From assembly GCF_002929845.1 (NCBI RefSeq), contig NZ_PJJS01000054.1, forward strand, positions 20,392 to 84,391: a stretch of 64,000 nucleotides of DNA. Direction: 5' to 3'. Shown piece by piece: positions 9,910 to 23,060 of this stretch. The translations under genes were made by a program, and so were the position numbers. How positions within the stretch are numbered: position 1 is the first letter of the stretch; every line of letters begins with the position of its first letter. The notes beneath the pieces were generated by a model, which saw nothing but the letters and a program-made list of their open reading frames with translations, was not told where the DNA came from and did not search any database. The DNA comes from Cryobacterium sp. M96 (lineage in GTDB: Bacteria > Actinomycetota > Actinomycetes > Actinomycetales > Microbacteriaceae).

Positions 9910-10503
9910 TCAGTCGTCGAGACCGCGGGCGGCCAGAGCCTCACCGATCGCATCCGCGGCATAGAGCGAGCGCACGACCACCGGCACGGCCAGGGCGAGC
10001 AGCGAACCCTGGGTGCCGCGCGCCCGACGGGCCTCGATCACCTCGGACACGATCTCGGTGACGAGCGGGATGCACCGCAGGGTGAGGGCGAGGAGGAGGC
10101 CGACCCGGTCGGCGTCGACCCAGCGACGGAACGGTCGTAGAAGCTTCTGAAAGCCCTCAAGCACGGCCGTGACCGTGGTCGTCACGGTGAACAGCGCCGC
10201 CAGCGCCACGGCGATCAGTAGCCGCCCGGCCATCAGGCCGGCCGTGGTCCAGCCGGCGAACAGCGCCTGGACTGGAACGGCGATCACCAAAATCCACAGG
10301 ATCGGGCCGATCTGCTGCCACGCCGCGCCCAGCGGCACCCGCGCCACCAGGAACAGTGCGGCGACCCCGAGAAGGCAGGCGCCCAGCTGCCAGAGCTCGC
10401 CGAGCGAGCCGACGAGCAGCACGGCGAGCGAGAGAAGCACGAGCTTGAGCAGCATCGGCGCGCGGTGGATCAGCGAGTGGCCGGGGTGATAGAGCCCGAT
10501 CAT
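9910..10503 (-). CDS. bioN: ECF transporter T component (BioN/EcfT-like)
   Basis: About 197 residues from the ATG at 10503 (MIGLYHPGHSLIHR, a typical EcfT start). The frame stays open upstream, but those residues overlap bioM and are not family-like. Several transmembrane helices precede cytoplasmic coupling helices with RGTQGS and the C-terminal ALAARGLDD, which holds the ARG motif that docks onto the ATPase. It couples ATP hydrolysis to the biotin-binding S component. Third gene of bioY-bioM-bioN, 10 bp after bioM. Confidence 0.88.
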   Translation of the reverse strand: MIGLYHPGHSLIHRAPMLLKLVLLSLAVLLVGSLGELWQLGACLLGVAALFLVARVPLGAAWQQIGPILWILVIAVPVQALFAGWTTAGLMAGRLLIAVALAALFTVTTTVTAVLEGFQKLLRPFRRWVDADRVGLLLALTLRCIPLVTEIVSEVIEARRARGTQGSLLALAVPVVVRSLYAADAIGEALAARGLDD

Positions 10504-10513
10504 GCCGGCCCGA

Positions 10514-11194
10514 TCATGCCAGCAGCTCCCGGTAAGCGCCGAGCGCGGCATCCGGTGCACCGTCGGCGACCACCCGGCCGTCCTCGATCACAATCACGCG
10601 GTCGAAGGCGGCGAGCAGGTCCAGCTGGTGGGTGACCACGATGACCTGCTGGCTCAGGCCGAGCAGAAGTTCGGTGATGCGCCGGGCATTGCGTGCGTCG
10701 AGCAGCGTGGTCGGCTCGTCGGCGACCACGATCTCAGGCTCCGCCACGAGCACGGCCGCCAGCGCGAGCAACTGCTTTTGGCCGCCGGACAGCCGGTGCG
10801 CCGGATGGTCGGCGTGCTGGTCGAGCCCGAAGCGCTCGAGCGCCGCCCGCGTGCGGGTCGAGATCTCGAGCGGGGTCAGCCCGCGGCGGCGCAGGGTGAA
10901 GGCGACGTCTTCGGCCACGGTGGGCATCACGATCTGATTGTCCGGGTTGGTGAAGATGAAGCCGACCTGCCGGCGCACCGCCTTGGCGTTCCGGGCCACG
11001 TCGAGGCCGCCGACGCTTACGATTCCGGTGTCGGGCTTGATCAATCCGTTGATCAGGCGCACGAGGGTGGACTTTCCCGACCCGTTCGCACCGACGATGC
11101 CGATGCGCTGTTCGGTGAGGGTCAGACGGATGTCCCGCAGCACCATCCGTTCACCGAACGCATGCGAGACGCTGTCGAAGTCGATCCTGCTCAT
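10514..11194 (-). CDS. bioM: ECF transporter ATPase for biotin (BioM)
   Basis: 226 residues. Walker A GIVGANGSGKST (about 32-43), Q-loop in FTNPDNQIV (typical of energy-coupling-factor ATPases), signature LSGGQKQLLALA, Walker B EIVVADEPTT, H-loop VVTHQLD. Its 5' end overlaps the 3' end of bioY by 4 bp (ATGA). Role: energises biotin import in the BioMNY complex. Confidence 0.92.
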   Translation of the reverse strand: MSRIDFDSVSHAFGERMVLRDIRLTLTEQRIGIVGANGSGKSTLVRLINGLIKPDTGIVSVGGLDVARNAKAVRRQVGFIFTNPDNQIVMPTVAEDVAFTLRRRGLTPLEISTRTRAALERFGLDQHADHPAHRLSGGQKQLLALAAVLVAEPEIVVADEPTTLLDARNARRITELLLGLSQQVIVVTHQLDLLAAFDRVIVIEDGRVVADGAPDAALGAYRELLA

Positions 11195-11850
11195 GATGCG
11201 GGCGTGACTGCTCCGGCGGTGACGTCGGCGGCCTCGGGCGCGGGAGCGGCGCTGCGGCGCGGCGGGATCAGACCCGGGTAGGCCCTGTGAACCTGGCGGG
11301 CCACCAGTACGGTCACGACCACCTTGATCAGGTCGCCGGGCAGAAACTTCGCGGCGTCGACAAGAGCAACCCAGAGCGGCAGGCCCAGGTTGATCGCGGT
11401 GACGGGCACGCCGATCAGGTAGACCACGACGAGACCGCCGAGGGTGGTGGCGCCGAGCGCCGCCCAGAGCCGGTAGCGGGGGAGGAGCAGGCCGGTCAAG
11501 TAGCCGATGACCAGGGCGCCGAGCAGCCAGCCGTAGAGGTAGCCGGCGGAGGGTGAGGTGGTGAACCAGACGATGCCGCCGCGCCCGCCAGACAGCAGCG
11601 GGAGGCCGGCTGCGGCGAGGGCGAGCAGGAGGAGCACGGCGAAGAAGCCCTTGCGCGCCCCGAGGATCGCCCCGGCCAGCATCACCCCGAGGGTCTGGAA
11701 GGTGATCGGCACGGCCACCGCCCCAATACTCAGGGCGCCGGGCAGTCCGAGTGCGGCGATCAGGGCGGCGAAGATGGCGATCTGCGACAGGTCGCGCACG
11801 CTCATGATGCGGGGTGTCGGGGTGCGGGCGATGAGGGGGCTGGAAGTCAT
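11191..11850 (-). CDS. bioY: Biotin transporter substrate-binding component BioY
   Basis: About 219 residues, six transmembrane helices. BioY hallmarks: PITFQTLGVMLAGAILGARKG (split here as PITFQTLGVML then AGAILGARKG) near residues 50-70 and the GGRGG..W..PSAGYLYGW segment near 90-110 that shapes the biotin site. The ATG at 11850 is chosen over a TTG 9 bp upstream; the ribosome site is weak (GAAG). First gene of the biotin ECF operon. No biotin-repressor dyad was recognised upstream. Residues after about 200 are Ala/Pro-rich and probably a flexible tail. Confidence 0.92.
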   Translation of the reverse strand: MTSSPLIARTPTPRIMSVRDLSQIAIFAALIAALGLPGALSIGAVAVPITFQTLGVMLAGAILGARKGFFAVLLLLALAAAGLPLLSGGRGGIVWFTTSPSAGYLYGWLLGALVIGYLTGLLLPRYRLWAALGATTLGGLVVVYLIGVPVTAINLGLPLWVALVDAAKFLPGDLIKVVVTVLVARQVHRAYPGLIPPRRSAAPAPEAADVTAGAVTPAS

Positions 11851-11895
11851 GATCTTCAATCTAGAATTCCGCGGCAGCGCGAGTCTGAAGAAGAC

Positions 11896-12984: not shown

Positions 12985-13173
12985 TTAGTCCTCGATTCGG
13001 CGATCGTCGGCATCCTGGATGACGGTTCCGATGGCGACGGCGGCGCTGAGCAGCCAGCCGATCCACATCAGCGCCAGGCGCCAGTCGCGCGGACCGGTGC
13101 GGGTGGCGCTCAGAATGTTCCAACCGCCGGCGAGCACGCCGATGATGGCACTGCTGAAAATGAACTTTCGCAT
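12985..13173 (-). CDS. Small two-helix membrane protein, hypothetical
   Basis: 62 residues from ATG 13173, with GGAGGT 4 nt upstream deciding the start; a longer in-frame extension to about 13428 runs antisense through the TetR gene and is not protein-like. Two hydrophobic helices (about 5-20 and 33-52) are separated by a basic loop (RTGPRDWR); the C-terminus is acidic (DADDRRIED). No known family. It is transcribed away from the neighbouring TetR gene, and the TetR operators at 13233-13266 lie 60-90 bp upstream of it, so it may share that regulation. Confidence 0.7.
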   Translation of the reverse strand: MRKFIFSSAIIGVLAGGWNILSATRTGPRDWRLALMWIGWLLSAAVAIGTVIQDADDRRIED

Positions 13174-13232
13174 GGTGACCTCCGCGTCTAACGCTACCCG
13201 GAAGTTGCCCGGCTGCACGTTTCCCGACAATC

Positions 13233-13266
13233 TGACCGATCGGACAAGCTCTGACCGATCGGTCAG
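13233..13266. promoter_or_regulatory. Tandem TetR operators upstream of the MMPL operon
   Basis: TGACCGATCGGACA (13233-13246, one mismatch) and the 16-bp perfect palindrome CTGACCGATCGGTCAG (13251-13266) repeat at 19-bp spacing, 14 bp before the TetR GTG at 13280. Two matching palindromes at helical spacing upstream of a TetR gene are a strong sign of an autoregulated operator. Confidence 0.8.
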
Positions 13267-13279
13267 GTACCGTGATCGG

Positions 13280-13897
13280 GTGACTCCAGAGCCCGTTGTG
13301 CCCCAGCCCCCACACAACCGCCAGAGCACCAGCGCAGAACTGCGCGCGACAGCGCTGGAGCAGTTCGCCTCGGTCGGGTTCGCCGGCACCTCGCTGCAGC
13401 AGATCGCCGACGCGGCCGGGTACTCCAAATCGAGCGTGCTCTACCACTTCGCCTCCAAGGAAGCGCTCCTCGACGAGGTGCTCACCCCGGCGGTGAACCG
13501 GCTGGAGGCCATTCTCGAACGGTTCCTCGCCACCGAGGAGAGCGCCCTGACCCGGAGCCGGTTCGTGAACGACTTCATCGACTTCATCCTTGAATTCCGC
13601 CTCGAGCTGCACACCTTCATCAACCAGTCTCAGTCGCTGCGCGGCATCCCCGTGATCGACCGGGCAGGAGTGGTGATCGTGCGCCTCTCCGACACGCTGT
13701 GCCACGGCGATGCGAGTACGGAGGACCGCATCCGCTTCGGTATCGCCCTCGGCGGCGCCGCCTACACCCTGGTGGCCGGCATGACGTTCCTCGGGGAGGA
13801 GATAGCCCCGGTGGAAGAGGTCCGACCGGCTCTCCTGACCGTCATCACCGAGTTGCTTGCCCCTGTCACCGTTCGCACCGCCCCGTCCCGGAAGTAG
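13280..13897 (+). CDS. TetR family repressor of the MMPL/YhgE operon
   Basis: 205 residues from GTG 13280. N-terminal HTH is clear: ATALEQFASVGFAGTSLQQI then ADAAGYSKSSVLYHFASKEA. The C-terminal domain carries the ligand pocket (inferred). Upstream GTGs would place the start inside or before the tandem operators at 13233-13266. The MMPL gene starts 5 bp after the stop codon, so the repressor, MMPL transporter and YhgE/Pip protein form one operon. Signal unknown; lipophilic or cell-wall-active compounds are a reasonable guess for this context. Confidence 0.88.
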   Translation: MTPEPVVPQPPHNRQSTSAELRATALEQFASVGFAGTSLQQIADAAGYSKSSVLYHFASKEALLDEVLTPAVNRLEAILERFLATEESALTRSRFVNDFIDFILEFRLELHTFINQSQSLRGIPVIDRAGVVIVRLSDTLCHGDASTEDRIRFGIALGGAAYTLVAGMTFLGEEIAPVEEVRPALLTVITELLAPVTVRTAPSRK

Positions 13898-13902
13898 CAC
13901 CC

Positions 13903-16803
13903 ATGGCAACCCTGCTCTATCGAATCGGTCACTTCGCCTACCAGCGTGCGGGCCTGGTGCTCGGCATCTGGGCCATCCTGCTGGTCGGGATCCTCGGCTC
14001 CGGGGTGGCCCTCGGTGGCCAGACCCAGGAGTCGTACGCGATTCCCGGCACGGAATCACAGGACACCATCGACAAGCTCGGCGAGGTGTTCCCCCAGGCG
14101 GCCGGCGCCGCGGTACAGGTTGTCTACACGGCCCCGGACGGGGCATCCGTCACTGACGAGCCTTACCGCACGGCCATCGTCGACATGGCGGCCGAACTCG
14201 CGGACGTGCCCGGCGTCGACTCGGTGCTGACGCCCTATGACGAATATGCGTCGGGCGCGATCTCCGACGACTCGGAGAGTGCGTTCAGCCAGGTTCAGTT
14301 GTCCGGCTTATCAACCGACGTCACCGCGGAAACCCTCGACGACGTGACCGCGACGCGGGATATCGCCGAGCAGGCCGGCCTCGAGGTAGCCTTCGGCGGC
14401 CAGGTTTTCCAGGACAACACCTTCGGCATCACCATCTCCGAGGTTCTCGGCCTGATCTTCGCGGGCGTGGTGCTGGTGATCACCTTCGGTTCGCTCGTAT
14501 CCGCCGGGATGCCGCTGCTGATGGCCCTGATCGGCGTCGGCGTCGCCATCGGCGGCATCACCGTGATTTCCGCATTCGTGCCGGTCTCGAGCACGGCCCC
14601 CATGCTCGCCCTGATGCTCGGGCTCGCCGTAGGCATCGACTACGTGCTCTTCATCCTGTCGCGGCATCGCACGCAGCTCGCCAACGGGGTCGAACCACAC
14701 GATTCGGCCGCCTCGGCCGTGGCTACCGCCGGCAGCGCCGTCGTCTTCGCCGGGATCACCGTGATCATCGCCCTGCTCGGGCTGCTCGTGGTCGGCATCC
14801 CCTTCCTCAGCGTGATGGGGCTGGGCGCCGCCTTGGCCGTGCTGGTCTCCATCTTCGTGGCGGTCACGCTCCTCCCCGCCGTTCTCGGCCTCGCCAAGGG
14901 GCGCCTCACTCCCAAGACAGGCAGCCGCGCGCACCACCGGGCCACCCGTCCAGACACCGGCCGGCCCACCCTCGGCCACCGCTGGGTCAACCTCGTGCTC
15001 AGGGCGCCGGTCGTGGCCGTGCTCCTCGTGGTGGGCGTGCTCGGCACGCTGGCGATCCCGGCCCTCAGCCTCGACCTGAACCTGCCTGACGGGGCGTCCG
15101 AGCCGGCCGGTTCGACGCAGCGAGAGGCGTTCACCATGCTCGAGGAGGGCTTCGGTCCGGGCTACAACGGTCCGCTCATCGTCGTCGTCGACATCACCCA
15201 GACGACGGATATCTTCGGTGACCTCGACACCATCGGCGCGGCCCTGCGCACCCTGCCCGGCGTGGCCTTCGTCGGCAAGGGCACTCCGAACCCGACCGTC
15301 GACACCGCCATCATCCAGGTCATGCCGGACAGCGCGCCGAACGCGCCCGAGACCAAGGCGCTCGTGCAGGCCATCCGCGATCTGGCACCATCGATCGACG
15401 ACGACTTGCGCACCCCCATCGCCGTGACCGGCGCGACCGCCGTGTCGATCGACATCTCCAACCGCCTCAGCAACGCGCTCGTGCCGTTCGCCTTGATCGT
15501 GGTGGGGCTCTCGATCATCCTGCTGACCATGGTGTTCCGGTCGATCTTCGTGCCGATCAAAGCGGCCCTCGGGTTCCTGCTCTCGGTGGCCGCATCGATC
15601 GGCGCGACCGTGGCGATCTTCCAGTGGGGCTGGTTCTCCGAGCTGCTCGGGGTGGAAACCCCCGGGCCGATCCTAAGCTTCCTGCCCATCCTGCTGATGG
15701 CCGTGCTCTTCGGTCTGGCCATGGACTACGAGGTGTTCCTCGTCTCCGGCATGCGGGAGGAGTTCGTGAAGACCGGCCTGGCCCGCGAATCCATCGTGCA
15801 CGGGTTCTCCCACGCTGCCCGCGTGGTCACGGCCGCCGCCCTGATCATGTTCTTCGTCTTCTTTGCCTTCGTGCCCGAGGGCACCGGGGCGATCAAGGGC
15901 ATCGCGTTCGCCCTCGCCGTCGGAGTCTTCCTCGACGCGTTCCTGGTGCGGATGACATTGGTCCCGGCCGCGATGGCCCTCGCCGGCGATGCCGCCTGGT
16001 GGCTGCCACGCTGGCTCTCCCGCATTCTGCCCAACGTCGACATCGAGGGTGAGGGTCTGCGCCGGCACCTGGCCGACAAGGAATGGGCCATCAGCAAGCC
16101 GCACGCCATCACGGCCGAGGGAGCCGTCTTCGGGCTGCCGGAGAGCCCCTTCGGGCCGCTGGACCTCACCATCGACGCCGGCGCGGTGGTGGTACTGACC
16201 GGCTCCGCCACCCACCGCCGCGTCGTCGCCGCCACCCTGGCCGGCCGGCTCGACCCGGTGTTCGGCCGCCTCCAGGTCATGGGCTTTCCGCTGCCGTCCG
16301 AGCGCAGCCGCGCCCTCCGCGCGGTGGCGCTCGCCGACGTGGGCGACAGCCGCGACAATGGGCTCACCGTGGGGGAGTTGCTGGCCGAACGGCTGGACCT
16401 GGCGCATCCGTGGTACCGCGCCGCGTCGCGCCGTTCGCTTCTCGCGGGGTGGATCGCGCGTCTGAACGGTGCGCTCGGCACCCCGTCGAGCGGCCGGGAC
16501 GCCGGCCCGATCGTGGCCGGCACGACGGTATCGTCCCTCTCCGCCCTGGGCCGTGCCGCGGTGCACGTGACCGCGGCGCTCATCGAGACCCCGGGAGTTG
16601 TCATCGTCGACCTCGGCGAGGGACTGCCCGTCGACCCGGCGGGGCGGGACCTCGTGCAGGTGCTGGCGATCCTCGCCCCGGCCTCGACCGCCCTCATCGT
16701 CGGTGCCGCCTCCTTCCCCGAGGCGATCGCGGTCTACCGCGGGGCCCGCCCGCTGCAGACCCTCGAACTCGATTCCCGTGACCGAAAGGCCCTGCAGCGA
16801 TGA
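13903..16803 (+). CDS. MMPL family transporter with degenerate ABC-ATPase-like C-terminal domain
   Basis: 966 residues. Residues 1 to about 705 form a complete MMPL/RND-like exporter: a TM helix (about 15-35), two extracytoplasmic loops and two membrane bundles, with the proton-relay-type GLAVGIDYVLFILSRHR (about 241-257) and its partner GLAMDYEVFLVSGMREEF. Usual MMPL proteins end soon after. Here a soluble region (about 730-966) has the outline of an ABC nucleotide-binding domain: a GPLDLTIDAG strand, VVLTGSATHRR where Walker A should be (near 765; no GK[S/T]), LSALGRAAVHV in place of the signature, and VVIVDLGEGLP in place of Walker B (near 898; no DE). The tail is probably a non-hydrolysing pseudo-ATPase. 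Stop overlaps the next start (ATGA). Confidence 0.88.
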   Translation: MATLLYRIGHFAYQRAGLVLGIWAILLVGILGSGVALGGQTQESYAIPGTESQDTIDKLGEVFPQAAGAAVQVVYTAPDGASVTDEPYRTAIVDMAAELADVPGVDSVLTPYDEYASGAISDDSESAFSQVQLSGLSTDVTAETLDDVTATRDIAEQAGLEVAFGGQVFQDNTFGITISEVLGLIFAGVVLVITFGSLVSAGMPLLMALIGVGVAIGGITVISAFVPVSSTAPMLALMLGLAVGIDYVLFILSRHRTQLANGVEPHDSAASAVATAGSAVVFAGITVIIALLGLLVVGIPFLSVMGLGAALAVLVSIFVAVTLLPAVLGLAKGRLTPKTGSRAHHRATRPDTGRPTLGHRWVNLVLRAPVVAVLLVVGVLGTLAIPALSLDLNLPDGASEPAGSTQREAFTMLEEGFGPGYNGPLIVVVDITQTTDIFGDLDTIGAALRTLPGVAFVGKGTPNPTVDTAIIQVMPDSAPNAPETKALVQAIRDLAPSIDDDLRTPIAVTGATAVSIDISNRLSNALVPFALIVVGLSIILLTMVFRSIFVPIKAALGFLLSVAASIGATVAIFQWGWFSELLGVETPGPILSFLPILLMAVLFGLAMDYEVFLVSGMREEFVKTGLARESIVHGFSHAARVVTAAALIMFFVFFAFVPEGTGAIKGIAFALAVGVFLDAFLVRMTLVPAAMALAGDAAWWLPRWLSRILPNVDIEGEGLRRHLADKEWAISKPHAITAEGAVFGLPESPFGPLDLTIDAGAVVVLTGSATHRRVVAATLAGRLDPVFGRLQVMGFPLPSERSRALRAVALADVGDSRDNGLTVGELLAERLDLAHPWYRAASRRSLLAGWIARLNGALGTPSSGRDAGPIVAGTTVSSLSALGRAAVHVTAALIETPGVVIVDLGEGLPVDPAGRDLVQVLAILAPASTALIVGAASFPEAIAVYRGARPLQTLELDSRDRKALQR

Positions 16804-18716
16804 GCACCAGGCTTGAGGAACTGTTCAGCCGCACGCCCGGGCAGCGCCGAGGGGCCCTCGGGGCCCTGCTGGCGGGCCTGATCGTGGTGCCGCTGGCGGT
16901 TGCCGGACTCTTCGCCGGGGCCCTCGCCACCGCCGATCAGCGCGTGGACACGCTGCCGGCGATCGTCGTCAACAACGACGAGATCGTCACCACCACCCTG
17001 CCCGACGGCACCGAGCAGCCGGTGCTCGCCGGCCGCCTGCTCGTGACCGAACTCACCAAGCCTTCCGATGAGGGGTCCGAGGCCACCGGGTTCGACTGGA
17101 CCATCTCCAACTCCGCGGATGCCGCGTCGGCCCTGGCCTCCGGCGACGCCTACGCGGTGCTCACGATCCCGAAGGACTTCTCGGCGTCGGTGACCTCGCT
17201 GGGCGGGGCGGCTCCCACCCAGGCCGACCTGGGCATCCGCACGGATGACGCGCACTCGTTCCTGGCCGGATCGGTGGCCCAGTCGGTGGGCACCGCCATG
17301 TCGGGCGTCTTCGGCCGCGAGATCACCTCGCAGTACCTCAACGGGCTCTACACCAGCCTGGCCGTGCTGGGCGAGTCCCTCACGCAGGCGGCGGATGGCG
17401 CCGCGCAGGTTTCGACCGGGGTCACCGGCGTGGCCACCGGACTCGATTCGCTGGCCGGCGGCACGGCCGCCGCGGCATCCGGGGCCTCGTCCGCCGCGAC
17501 CGGCGCCGCCAGCTTCTCCTCCGGCGTGACCGAGTACACCCAGGGCGTCACCGGACTGAGCGACGGCCTGAACCGGCTGAGCACGGGCGCGGTCGGGCTG
17601 GCTCCGCTCGCGACCGGCCTACCGGCCTACGCGGCCGGGGTGCAGGCCAACGCCGACGGTTTCAGGCAGCTGAACGCGGCCATGCAGAGCGACCCGCGGG
17701 TCGCCGACTACGCGCCGGCCCTGCTGCAGCTCCAGGGCGGATTCGACGCCCTCGCCGCGCAGAGCACCGGCATCGGCCAGGCCGGTCCGGGCCTCGAAGG
17801 CGTGCTCGATGGGGTGTCTCAGAGCGCCAACGGTGCGAGCCTGCTCTCCGCCGGCGGCAGCGACCTCCGCGGCGGTGCCAGCGACCTCGCCACCGGCGTT
17901 GCCGGCATCGCCACCGGCCTCTCGCAGCTGGCCACCGGAACAACGGATGCCGCGGCGGGCGCCCGCCTGCTCGAATCGGGCGCGGTCGAACTCGCCAGCG
18001 GGCTGCAGGACGGCGCGGACAGCGCGGCCCTTCTCACCGACACCGACCCGGTGACGACCGCGGCGGTCGTCTCCGAACCGGTCGGCATCACCGCGGAGCG
18101 CGACAACGCCTTCGCGTCGATCGGCCCGGTCATCGGCATGGTCTTCGTGCCGATCGGCCTGTGGATCGGTGCCCTGGCGATCTTCCTGGTGATGAAGCCG
18201 CTGTCCGCGCTCGCGCTCGCGTCGACCGCGTCGACCGGCAACCTCGTGGCCCGCAGCCTCGGCCGTGCGTTCGGAATCGCCGCAGCGCAGGCCGTGGTCG
18301 TGGTGTTGTTGCTGCACAGCACGCTCGGCGTCTCGTGGTCGATCCTGCCGTCGACCCTGGCCTTCGCGGTGTTCCTCGCCTTCGTGTTCGCGGCGGTGCA
18401 CCATTTCCTCACGGCGGCGTTCGGCCGGGTCGGAATCGTGGTCTCCCTGGTACTGCTCGCGCTGCAGCTCACCGCGGTGGGTGGGCTCTACCCGATTGAG
18501 CTGGTGTCGGCGCCGTTCCAGATGATCAGCCCGTTCCTGCCGCTCACCTGGGCGGTGCGGGGCATGCAGGCCATTGTCTCCGGGGGAGGCGGCAGCGCCG
18601 GCGGGCCCGCGGCCATCCTGCTGATCCTCGCACTGGTGAGCGTTCTGGCCTCGTACTGGACCGTCGCCAGCCGGCGCGGCGCCCGCTCGTTCGGCCTGGC
18701 GCAGGCCCGCAGCTGA
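16800..18716 (+). CDS. YhgE/Pip-type ABC-2 membrane protein
   Basis: 638 residues. An N-terminal TM (about 22-42) is followed by a large extracytoplasmic domain and then about five C-terminal TM helices (about 440-625) of the ABC-2/YhgE type. The middle (about 200-420) is Ala/Gly/Ser-rich with repeated units such as ATGLDSLAGG and ATGVAGIATG, the XXXLXXG heptad repeats known from YhgE/Pip proteins and type VII-associated factors. ABC-2 permeases normally need an ATPase; the nearest candidate is the degenerate domain fused to the preceding MMPL protein, translated through an ATGA overlap. Likely joint export or cell-envelope function. Confidence 0.85.
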   Translation: MSTRLEELFSRTPGQRRGALGALLAGLIVVPLAVAGLFAGALATADQRVDTLPAIVVNNDEIVTTTLPDGTEQPVLAGRLLVTELTKPSDEGSEATGFDWTISNSADAASALASGDAYAVLTIPKDFSASVTSLGGAAPTQADLGIRTDDAHSFLAGSVAQSVGTAMSGVFGREITSQYLNGLYTSLAVLGESLTQAADGAAQVSTGVTGVATGLDSLAGGTAAAASGASSAATGAASFSSGVTEYTQGVTGLSDGLNRLSTGAVGLAPLATGLPAYAAGVQANADGFRQLNAAMQSDPRVADYAPALLQLQGGFDALAAQSTGIGQAGPGLEGVLDGVSQSANGASLLSAGGSDLRGGASDLATGVAGIATGLSQLATGTTDAAAGARLLESGAVELASGLQDGADSAALLTDTDPVTTAAVVSEPVGITAERDNAFASIGPVIGMVFVPIGLWIGALAIFLVMKPLSALALASTASTGNLVARSLGRAFGIAAAQAVVVVLLLHSTLGVSWSILPSTLAFAVFLAFVFAAVHHFLTAAFGRVGIVVSLVLLALQLTAVGGLYPIELVSAPFQMISPFLPLTWAVRGMQAIVSGGGGSAGGPAAILLILALVSVLASYWTVASRRGARSFGLAQARS

Positions 18717-19162: not shown

Positions 19163-19939
19163 TCAGGGGAGAGACGGGCCCTGGCCGATACTCAACCAGG
19201 CGTCGGTTCCTCCGCGAGCGTTCGGGCCGGGGCCTCGGTTCGTGGCGCGGGCCTCCTTCATCGCTTGAAGCTGGCGGTCGACAGCCGCTCTGGTCGCCCC
19301 AGCCGAGAGCTGCCGCTCGAGGTCCGCGTCGAGCGGGGCCGTGACATCGTTCAGAGCGCCGCTGGAGAGCAGCTCGTCGGTGGCGGCGGCGCGGGCCTGC
19401 ATCTGGGTGACCCGGTCCTTGGCCCGGTCGAGGTCGGCACCGACCGTGCCCAGTTGCGAGCCGATGCCGGACGCGGCCTCGTTGGCCTTGACCCGAGCCT
19501 CGGAGGCAGCGTAGGTGGCCTTGATGGTCTCCTTCTCCAGGCGGAAGGCGGCGACCCGTTCGGCGAGGCGTCGTTCGTTGTCCTGCAGTTGCGCCTGCTG
19601 CTGCACCAAAACGAGGTACTGGTCACGGATGGCTGCCACCTGGCCCTCGAGGAGCGACCGGCGTTCCAGCGCCGTGCGGGCCAGATCTTCCCGGCCCTGG
19701 TTCAGCGCCTCCTGGGCCTGGTCGGCCAGCCGCTGGTAGCGGCCGCCCATGTCCTGCCCCTGCAACTCAATTCGCTTCTTTGCCGTTGCGACCTCGGCCA
19801 GCCCCAGGCGCACCTGCTGGAGCGACTTCACCTGCTGCTCGTAGCTGTCGTCGAGGGCCTCGCGGGGGTCTTCGATCCGGGTCAGGGCCTGGTTTGACTT
19901 GCTGCGGAGGATGACGCGCAGCCGCGAGGTGAGGCTCAT
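19163..19939 (-). CDS. pspA: PspA/IM30 family membrane-stress protein
   Basis: 258 residues. Starts with the amphipathic membrane-binding helix typical of PspA (MSLTSRLRVILRSKSNQAL), then a long coiled coil (about 30-200, with EDPREALDDSYEQQ and repeated E/Q/R heptads) and a loose C-terminal tail (about 215-258). PspA/IM30/Vipp1 proteins polymerise on the inner membrane surface and protect it from leakage. The ATG overlaps the stop of the membrane-anchored coiled-coil protein upstream, so the two probably form one stress module. No helix-turn-helix regulator is adjacent. Confidence 0.9.
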   Translation of the reverse strand: MSLTSRLRVILRSKSNQALTRIEDPREALDDSYEQQVKSLQQVRLGLAEVATAKKRIELQGQDMGGRYQRLADQAQEALNQGREDLARTALERRSLLEGQVAAIRDQYLVLVQQQAQLQDNERRLAERVAAFRLEKETIKATYAASEARVKANEAASGIGSQLGTVGADLDRAKDRVTQMQARAAATDELLSSGALNDVTAPLDADLERQLSAGATRAAVDRQLQAMKEARATNRGPGPNARGGTDAWLSIGQGPSLP

Positions 19940-20604
19940 GATTCAGTCCTTCTGTTGAAAGTATTCATGGGCAAGGGCCGGCGCGGATCAGAGAACCCGT
20001 CGTTGCCGTTATGGGAGTGGCCGTCGAGGGAGCAGCCGTTGAGCGAGCGGCCGTTGAGGGAGCGCAACTCATCGACCCCAGCCCGGAGCGCGGCCACCTC
20101 GCGGTCGACCTCGGACCGAAGGGCCGTGAGGGTGTCATCGGTGAGCTCTCCGAGACCGGCAGCGACGGCCGAGCGCAGCCGGCGCACCAACCCGGCCACT
20201 TGGTCGACACGGCGGCCGGCCACCGACAGCGCCTCGGCGAGCACGACAGGATCGGCCTCGCTCGTCAGCAGCCGCAGCTGCGATTGCAGCGTGACGCTTT
20301 CGCCCTGAATGCGACGGAAAAGTCGCGGAAGCTCGCCGAGCGGGCCCTGGCTGCTCCGGGCCAGGTCGACGGCTGCCTGACCACTGTCGAGAGATTCCCT
20401 CAGCCGCAACTGCAGCTTCAGAACCTCGTGTTGCGGGCCCCGACTCAGGATGGTGCGAGAACGCAACACCGCGCCGGTCAGCCTGCGGCTACGGCGAATG
20501 CGCCGGTACAGCCTCCGCACCAGAACGAAGAACGAGACGAAGATAACGAGGCTGATGGTCGCGAGTGAGATCGACACCCAGCTCAGCAGTGAATTCAGGT
20601 CCAT
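19936..20604 (-). CDS. Membrane-anchored coiled-coil protein, PspA partner (hypothetical)
   Basis: 222 residues. One N-terminal transmembrane helix (about 8-30), a strongly basic stop-transfer segment (RRLYRRIRRSRR), then predicted helices (about 45-180) with coiled-coil character, and a low-complexity Ser/Asn/Gly tail with a short repeat (SLNG, SLNG, SLDG, SHNG; about 184-200). No catalytic motif or named family recognised. ATGA overlap with pspA indicates co-translation. It plausibly recruits PspA to the membrane, the role PspB/PspC-like partners play elsewhere; this is inference from context only. Confidence 0.7.
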   Translation of the reverse strand: MDLNSLLSWVSISLATISLVIFVSFFVLVRRLYRRIRRSRRLTGAVLRSRTILSRGPQHEVLKLQLRLRESLDSGQAAVDLARSSQGPLGELPRLFRRIQGESVTLQSQLRLLTSEADPVVLAEALSVAGRRVDQVAGLVRRLRSAVAAGLGELTDDTLTALRSEVDREVAALRAGVDELRSLNGRSLNGCSLDGHSHNGNDGFSDPRRPLPMNTFNRRTES

Positions 20605-20807
20605 GGGTCCGCCTCTTTCAAACAGTCAGCCGGGGTCGCGCCACACCCGGACACGATCCACGGGTTAAAGTACGCGCGTTACCTCAAAGTTGTCCCCATG
20701 TCGGGCGACCGTGGCCGAGTGGCCAGCCCGGCCACCGCTTTCGGCCCACTGGTAGCCTTGGGAGACCACCAAGGCGTCGCTCTGCGCCCGCCGGAACGGA
20801 CGATCTC

Positions 20808-23060
<2,253 letters not shown>

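What the first reader, a model, noticed from the sequence alone, without database searches (positions are those of the whole stretch)
13903..18716. MMPL exporter fused to a degenerate ABC ATPase domain and co-translated with a YhgE/Pip ABC-2 protein
The MMPL protein has about 235 extra C-terminal residues laid out like an ABC nucleotide-binding domain, but Walker A reads VVLTGSATHRR (no GK[S/T]), the signature slot reads LSALGRAAVHV and the Walker B slot reads VVIVDLGEGLP. The next gene, coupled by an ATGA overlap, is an ABC-2-type YhgE/Pip protein, which would normally need such a domain. This suggests a hybrid export complex in which the RND-type exporter supplies energy and the dead ATPase serves as a docking domain.
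Basis: partly seen in the sequence, partly recalled or inferred. Interest (0 to 1): 0.8.

Follow-up and report, generated by a model that had tools for sequence, protein, structure and literature searches.

The report
Membrane pump carrying a dead ATPase
A bacterial lipid-type export pump carries at its end an ATPase-shaped domain whose ATP-burning parts are gone, and its gene is locked to the gene of a second membrane protein whose usual partner is a similarly broken ATPase, which suggests a transporter pair that swapped ATP for another energy source.

Summary
Residues 715-966 of the MMPL protein (16045-16800) are modelled with high confidence as an ABC nucleotide-binding domain, yet Walker A, signature, catalytic glutamate and H-loop are gone. 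The next gene is a true YhgE/Pip protein with an ATGA overlap. This is a lineage-wide unit: 107 of 299 family genomes match the full tail; YhgE follows in 135 of 136 collected loci with room, a TetR-like ORF lies upstream in 122 of 132; 0 of 140 tails have GK[ST]. dN/dS of 0.30-0.40 says it is kept. The new part: elsewhere in Actinomycetota YhgE is often preceded by a separate ABC-like gene that is already degenerate (0 of 33 with SGG, catalytic Glu or H-loop; GR[ST] for GK[ST] in 20). The tail is nearest to these, and fused-partner YhgEs form one clan. Best reading: YhgE's dead ABC partner moved once onto a proton-driven MMPL pump and serves as a non-catalytic docking/coupling module. Docking, energy coupling and cargo are inferred. 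24 of 140 tails lack the helical subdomain, so the usual NBD groove cannot be essential everywhere.

The parts
13019..13897 (+). TetR-family regulator (longest ORF; the helix-turn-helix match begins at codon 110, so the true start is probably further in)
   Evidence: TetR_N E 1.7e-14; a TetR-like ORF lies upstream within the fetched stretch in 122 of 132 loci, on the same strand in 108
13903..16803 (+). MMPL transporter fused to a degenerate ABC domain, 966 aa
   Evidence: PF03176 E 1.1e-79, 268 bits; translation; full-length model pLDDT 85.6, pTM 0.80
13903..16044 (+). MMPL core, residues 1-714
14638..14643 (+). D246-Y247, first proton-relay pair
   Evidence: invariant in 46 aligned fused proteins; the role is recalled from MmpL3
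15724..15729 (+). D608-Y609, second proton-relay pair
   Evidence: invariant in 46 aligned fused proteins; the role is recalled from MmpL3
16045..16800 (+). pseudo-ABC domain, residues 715-966
16189..16221 (+). Walker A slot VVLTGSATHRR, no GK[ST]
   Evidence: 0 of 140 distinct fused tails have GK[ST], Arg at the aligned Lys position in 121 of 140
16537..16569 (+). signature slot LSALGRAAVHV
   Evidence: 0 of 140 tails have [LVI]SGG
16597..16629 (+). Walker B slot VVIVDLGEGLP: Asp kept, catalytic Glu replaced by Leu
   Evidence: Asp in 99 of 140, gap in 30, another residue in 11
16687..16713 (+). H-loop slot TALIVGAAS, no His
   Evidence: 0 of 59 tails match an H-loop pattern against 23 of 29 ordinary ABC domains
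16800..16803 (+). ATGA stop-start overlap
   Evidence: ATGA (102) or GTGA (20) overlap in 122 of 135 loci
16800..18716 (+). YhgE/Pip protein, 638 aa
   Evidence: TIGR03061 and TIGR03062 above cut-off

Best explanation
Shown by computation: the MMPL tail is an ABC nucleotide-binding domain by descent and modelled fold that has lost every catalytic motif, it is under purifying selection, and it sits in a conserved unit tetR - mmpL::pseudoABC - yhgE whose last two genes overlap. Shown with moderate phylogenetic support: the tail belongs with the already degenerate ABC-like proteins encoded beside YhgE in other Actinomycetota, and the fusion-partnered YhgEs share one origin. Inferred: the tail kept the ancestral partner's job of binding YhgE in the cytoplasm and now holds YhgE and the MMPL pump in one complex; no ATP is hydrolysed there, and the work is driven by the proton gradient through the intact MMPL relay; YhgE acts as accessory or exit factor. 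The cargo is most likely an amphipathic envelope lipid or toxic lipid-like compound, under TetR control.
Against: No physical interaction was tested. 24 of 140 tails lack the helical subdomain, yet YhgE remains beside those loci with room. The ABC tree does not give the fused tails as a strict clan: two separate proteins fall with them (99/95), and only 27% of 200 bootstrap trees have one group. In 20 YhgE loci from the phylum-wide search (own genome's second copy, three of the order, the rest further off) no MMPL was found within the stretch, and among 20 separate pseudo-ABC loci of the order only L158 has one, so the MMPL-YhgE link is special to the fused lineage plus scattered cases. 6 of the 20 YhgEs have no ABC-like neighbour at all, so YhgE can do without one. 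Within the window's genus only 2 of 6 sampled genomes have the full tail.
Confidence: 0.5

Rival explanations
1. The pseudo-ABC domain is a self-contained regulator of the MMPL pump (for example an allosteric cap on its cytoplasmic face) and YhgE is only a co-transcribed partner that does not touch it.
For: The domain is covalently on the MMPL and is modelled after the last membrane helix through a short conserved linker; among the most conserved tail residues are E, G and W of this linker; short tails keep this part and lose the helical subdomain.
Against: The nearest relatives of the tail are encoded beside YhgE without an MMPL, and YhgE stays next to the fusion in 135 of 136 loci.
Confidence: 0.25
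2. The domain is a pseudo-ATPase that still binds a nucleotide or another anion without hydrolysis and works as a sensor or switch.
For: An Arg stands at the aligned Walker A Lys position in 121 of 140 tails and the Walker B Asp is kept in 99; 10 of 33 separate relatives keep GK[ST] and 20 have GR[ST].
Against: In the fused form GK[ST] is gone in 140 of 140 and the loop aligns as one residue shorter than in the separate proteins; signature and H-loop patterns are absent too.
Confidence: 0.12
3. The tail is a decaying leftover without function.
For: It evolves faster than the MMPL core (dN/dS 0.30-0.40 against 0.13-0.21).
Against: Purifying selection close to that on YhgE, a confident fold, full-tail matches in 107 of 299 family genomes, invariant residues.
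Confidence: 0.05
4. YhgE is powered in trans by a normal ABC ATPase encoded elsewhere, and the tail only blocks or competes for that site.
For: The own genome has many ordinary ABC domains (92 PF00005 matches).
Against: In 20 YhgE loci the direct ABC-like neighbour, where there is one (14), is degenerate; the only other ABC-like trace is a weak match (23 bits) on the other strand in L264, about 0.9 kb from the pseudo-ABC gene.
Confidence: 0.08

Closest known systems
MMPL/RND lipid exporters such as MmpL3 and FarE
   Same: MMPL domains, conserved D-Y pairs, TetR neighbour (FarE-FarR, passages of PMC12671165)
   Different: No member with a fused ABC-type domain or an overlapping YhgE gene turned up in the seven literature searches; MmpL3 equivalog score 205.5 against cut-off 1400
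ABC ATPase domains (FtsE, EcfA, MlaF, LptB and others)
   Different: No Walker A Lys, signature, catalytic Glu or H-loop
YhgE/Pip proteins
   Same: Window YhgE passes both NCBIfam models
   Different: Overlaps an MMPL fusion gene rather than following a separate ABC-like gene or none
Separate ABC-like genes before YhgE in Actinomycetota (annotated 'ATP-binding cassette domain-containing protein' in Rhodococcus erythropolis R138)
   Same: Nearest relatives of the tail by profile (E 1e-31); also 0 of 33 with SGG, catalytic Glu or H-loop
   Different: Separate gene; GR[ST] in 20, GK[ST] in 10, neither in 3 of 33
Degenerate nucleotide-binding sites in type I ABC exporters (PMC7756269, search listing and start of abstract only)
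   Same: Loss of catalytic residues in an ABC domain
   Different: There a second, working site is present in the same transporter (recalled); here no working partner was found beside the gene

Membership tests
MMPL (PF03176) | MMPL domain over the curated cut-off, in two copies | tested here: met
   268.3 bits against 20.5, two stretches
MMPL (PF03176) | D-Y proton-relay pairs in both halves (recalled from MmpL3) | tested here: met
   D246-Y247 and D608-Y609 invariant in 46 sequences
MmpL3 trehalose monomycolate exporter (NF052608) | Equivalog cut-off | tested here: not met
   205.5 against 1400 bits
ABC ATPase | ABC nucleotide-binding-domain fold | tested here: met
ABC ATPase | Walker A GxxGxGK[ST] | tested here: not met
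   0 of 140 tails; control 29 of 29
ABC ATPase | Signature LSGGQ | tested here: not met
   0 of 140 tails with [LVI]SGG; control 26 of 29
ABC ATPase | Catalytic glutamate after Walker B | tested here: not met
   window reads VVIVDLG; in the aligned column Glu occurs in 0 of 140 (30 gaps). A loose pattern (hydrophobic run plus DE) hits 3 of 140 tails, outside that column; control 29 of 29
ABC ATPase | ATP hydrolysis | not testable with these tools
   needs purified protein
YhgE/Pip | TIGR03061 and TIGR03062 over cut-off | tested here: met
   104.3 against 96.15 and 148.3 against 102.2 bits
Type VII secretion EsaA (TIGR03929) | N-terminal model cut-off | tested here: not met
   18.4 against 122 bits
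Hybrid RND-YhgE complex | Physical contact of tail and YhgE | not testable with these tools
   no co-folding of two chains was available; contact is inferred from co-inheritance only

The most novel reading that the evidence does not exclude
A hybrid transport machine in which an ABC-type permease-like protein (YhgE) has given up ATP: its ABC subunit first lost catalysis while still paired with YhgE, then was moved onto a proton-driven MMPL pump, so that the dead ABC domain became the mechanical or structural link through which proton-motive force drives an ABC-2-like partner. It would be a switch of energy source within one transporter, with the intermediate stages still alive in other Actinomycetota.
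Probability: 0.33. Interest if true: 0.92.

Novelty: new variant of a known kind. Interest (0 to 1): 0.72.

Why it matters
YhgE/Pip proteins are widespread, known to me mainly as phage-infection factors, and I know of no accepted energy source for them. The finding says that in the Actinomycetota sampled here their ABC-like partner, where there is one, is degenerate and, in one large lineage, fused to a proton-driven pump. That makes the question 'what powers YhgE?' directly testable, and offers a visible series (GSGKT, GSGRT, no P-loop, loss of the helical subdomain) for how an ATPase turns into a structural domain.

Tried and rejected
Chance resemblance to ABC: rejected by profile, profile-profile and model comparison. 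Genome-specific oddity: rejected. Sequencing-error explanation: rejected, since open fused frames occur in many genomes. Disordered tail: rejected by the model.

Dead ends: YhgE in 14 genomes of family f86, chosen in the hope of an unfused MMPL-YhgE stage, gave 0 of 14 at 1e-20, so the MMPL search there was of no use. The order-wide search with A1 matches 395 of 396 genomes, mostly ordinary ABC ATPases as I read the frames, and is not a prevalence figure. The PspA-like gene, its neighbour and the hydrolase are not conserved beside the unit (1, 1 and 0 of 80 loci). The separate ABC-like protein of the own genome matches 232 plasmid records, mostly rhizobial, where the annotated rows include ordinary ABC ATPases, so only the fused tail was specific in that collection. 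The full-length MMPL query matches 244 plasmid records, one over at least 80% of its length, which I did not look up; the 8 rows shown stop by residue 733.

Corrections made on the way: a first script read only some locus files (redone). The short P-loop 'GSRTS/GSKTS' of separate proteins came from dropping insert columns; raw sequences read GSGRTS/GSGKTS and the like. The first ABC tree held four rows taken from the wrong strand among 18 ordinary ABCs, and the second one mis-trimmed row (L151); the third (91 rows, L151 left out) is the one used. It did not print which two separate proteins fall with the fused tails; they were L266 and L268. The YhgE tree is a quick build with 35 sampled fused-partner rows of those held. 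Literature: 7 answered searches (several listings capped, most hits not opened; passages of PMC12584985, PMC9782250 and PMC12671165 were seen) showed no report of an MMPL-ABC fusion beside YhgE; the library holds open-licence PMC papers only. The structure comparison re-aligned Foldseek's top 1000 PDB chains; families not listed are not excluded.

Full report
WHAT IS THERE. The first, 13903-16803, is an MMPL transporter (PF03176, 268 bits) with 252 residues from the EGE of a conserved linker to the end. The second, 16800-18716, starts at the stop codon of the first (ATGA) and passes both curated YhgE/Pip models. The ORF of a TetR-family gene ends at 13897, five bases before the MMPL start. The nearest named relatives are Cryobacterium loci, so the window is probably from that genus and the family is Microbacteriaceae (inference).

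IT IS DEAD BUT KEPT. From L039-L098, L129-L148, L169-L248 and the window, 160 MMPL-core hits gave 140 complete, distinct tails; the other 20 were truncated, duplicate or partial. None of the 140 has GK[ST] or [LVI]SGG. At the aligned Walker A Lys position 121 of 140 have Arg, and a Trp of the linker region is kept in 139 of 140; the Arg alignment rests on a shortened loop and is not certain. The same kind of patterns on 29 ordinary ABC domains find GK[ST] in 29, SGG in 26, DE in 29 and an H-loop in 23. dN/dS of the tail against four Cryobacterium loci is 0.30-0.40, against 0.13-0.21 for the MMPL core and 0.18-0.34 for YhgE: constrained, though less than the pump. The MMPL part looks active: D246-Y247 and D608-Y609 are invariant in 46 aligned proteins.

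IT IS A LINEAGE-WIDE UNIT. With the A2 profile 201 of 299 family genomes match at 1e-18 (some of these by separate ABC-like genes); 107 of 299 have a match at 2.5e-40 or better that covers the model from position 1 or 2 to at least 249 of 279, by my count of the listed rows; a few of these lie in frames of 269 to 689 aa, too short to show the whole fusion. Within the window's own genus 2 of 6 sampled genomes have it (G000, G239). In all 60 fetched family loci a YhgE ORF lies downstream (in L041 it is in two pieces). Over the 140-tail set, YhgE follows in 135 of 136 loci with room (the exception, L214, is a run-on frame that overlaps the YhgE match), a 4-base ATGA/GTGA overlap is present in 122 of 135, and a TetR-like ORF lies upstream within the fetched stretch in 122 of 132, on the same strand in 108. 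The loci were chosen for having the tail, so the tail is by construction, but the neighbours are not. Named loci also come from Tessaracoccus, Propionicicella and, more weakly, Brevibacterium (L246, no match to the tail model), and class-level genomes such as G967 and G893 have the full tail. Many ordinary MMPLs listed match only the first 30-60 positions of the model, the end of the pump.

WHERE THE TAIL CAME FROM. In other families the best A1 matches after the fusions are separate genes; in 20 of 20 that I fetched YhgE follows directly (L149-L168). The own genome has such a pair as well, at G000:C21:2083-4911. Of 20 loci fetched for strong YhgE matches in the phylum-wide search (one from the own genome, three from the order), 14 have such a gene directly upstream and 6 have no ABC-like neighbour. 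In 33 of these separate proteins, 20 have GR[ST], 10 GK[ST] and 3 neither at Walker A; none has SGG, a DE after Walker B or an H-loop, and 24 have D followed by D, N or Q at Walker B (L151 was left out). So the YhgE partner was degenerate apart from and, most simply, before the fusion. The tails are much closer to these (E 1e-31) than to ordinary ABCs (E 7e-12). In a 91-row tree ordinary ABCs are split off at 100/100, and the 29 fused tails group with two separate proteins at 99/95; strict one-origin of the tails appears in only 27% of 200 bootstrap trees. The YhgE tree is clearer: 35 sampled fused-partner YhgEs form one clan (SH-aLRT 99) nested among YhgEs with separate partners, and it splits into 11 rows with short tails (93) and 24 with full tails (99). 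Distances of separate pseudo-ABC and YhgE correlate at r 0.90 in 34 loci (2000 permutations reach at most 0.27; shared ancestry contributes). An independent look points the same way: among 72,556 plasmid records the window tail matches exactly one at 1e-5, a Rhodococcus gene annotated 'ATP-binding cassette domain-containing protein' directly before 'YhgE/Pip domain-containing protein'.

A COMPLICATION. 24 of 140 fused tails (among them Microbacterium, Tessaracoccus and Propionicicella loci) lack the helical subdomain, while YhgE stays. In ordinary ABC transporters the coupling helix binds in the groove between the two subdomains (established knowledge, recalled), so contact with YhgE, if it exists, must use the remaining core or the linker in those lineages.

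HOW IT MOST LIKELY WORKS. The dead domain holds YhgE to the MMPL pump; proton-motive force through the MMPL relay does the work; ATP is not burned. Fold (predicted), loss of catalytic motifs, retention and co-inheritance are shown by computation; contact, energy flow and cargo are inferred. A lipid-like cargo is suggested by the MMPL family and by the TetR-RND arrangement known from FarE-FarR, a fatty-acid resistance pair (passages of PMC12671165). In Saccharopolyspora hirsuta a YhgE/Pip gene and an MMPL gene with neighbouring tag numbers are induced by cholesterol, 3.82- and 3.33-fold (PMC9782250, passages with Table 2); that they are adjacent is inferred from the tags, and whether that MMPL is fused was not checked. 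An OtsAB trehalose gene lies downstream of YhgE on the same strand within 2.5 kb in 38 of 70 loci with room, a lead only.

NOVELTY. Seven literature searches showed no report of the fusion or of degenerate ABC partners of YhgE. I file it as a new variant of a known kind (an MMPL pump with a pseudo-ATPase module); the hybrid-machine reading would be categorically new but needs an interaction experiment.

Noticed in passing
G000:C21:2083-4911 (locus L253): Second system in the same genome: a separate ABC-like gene with GPTGSGRTSL (Walker A Lys to Arg) followed directly by another YhgE/Pip gene.
   Followed up: partly
L142, L149-L168, L253-L268: Separate YhgE-partner ABC-likes form a decay series (GSGKT, GSGRT, no P-loop); none of 33 has SGG, catalytic Glu or H-loop.
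   Followed up: yes
MMPL tails of L094, L095, 14 of L129-L148 and 8 of L236-L248: 24 of 140 fused tails have lost the helical subdomain but keep the linker and core strands.
   Followed up: partly
L270, L271, L272: Two YhgE genes in tandem without any ABC-like neighbour found, in three distant genomes.
   Followed up: no
window 20565-23060: OtsA-OtsB-like trehalose gene downstream, named by eye; a relative lies on the same strand within 2.5 kb of YhgE in 38 of 70 related loci with room.
   Followed up: partly
window 19163-20604, minus strand: A PspA-like gene plus a small membrane protein, named by eye, sit between YhgE and otsAB; of 80 related loci only L169 has both, also downstream of YhgE.
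   Followed up: partly
window 9910-11859, minus strand: Cluster that looks like a biotin ECF transporter (T, A and BioY-like proteins), named by eye from the sequence.
   Followed up: no
L214: The MMPL frame runs on to 1629 aa through the YhgE region in this Clavibacter contig, which looks like a frameshift.
   Followed up: no
L226: The MMPL is split over two open frames in this metagenome-assembled genome.
   Followed up: no
L158 9598-12048: The only locus among the 20 separate pseudo-ABC plus YhgE loci L149-L168 with an MMPL gene nearby.
   Followed up: no
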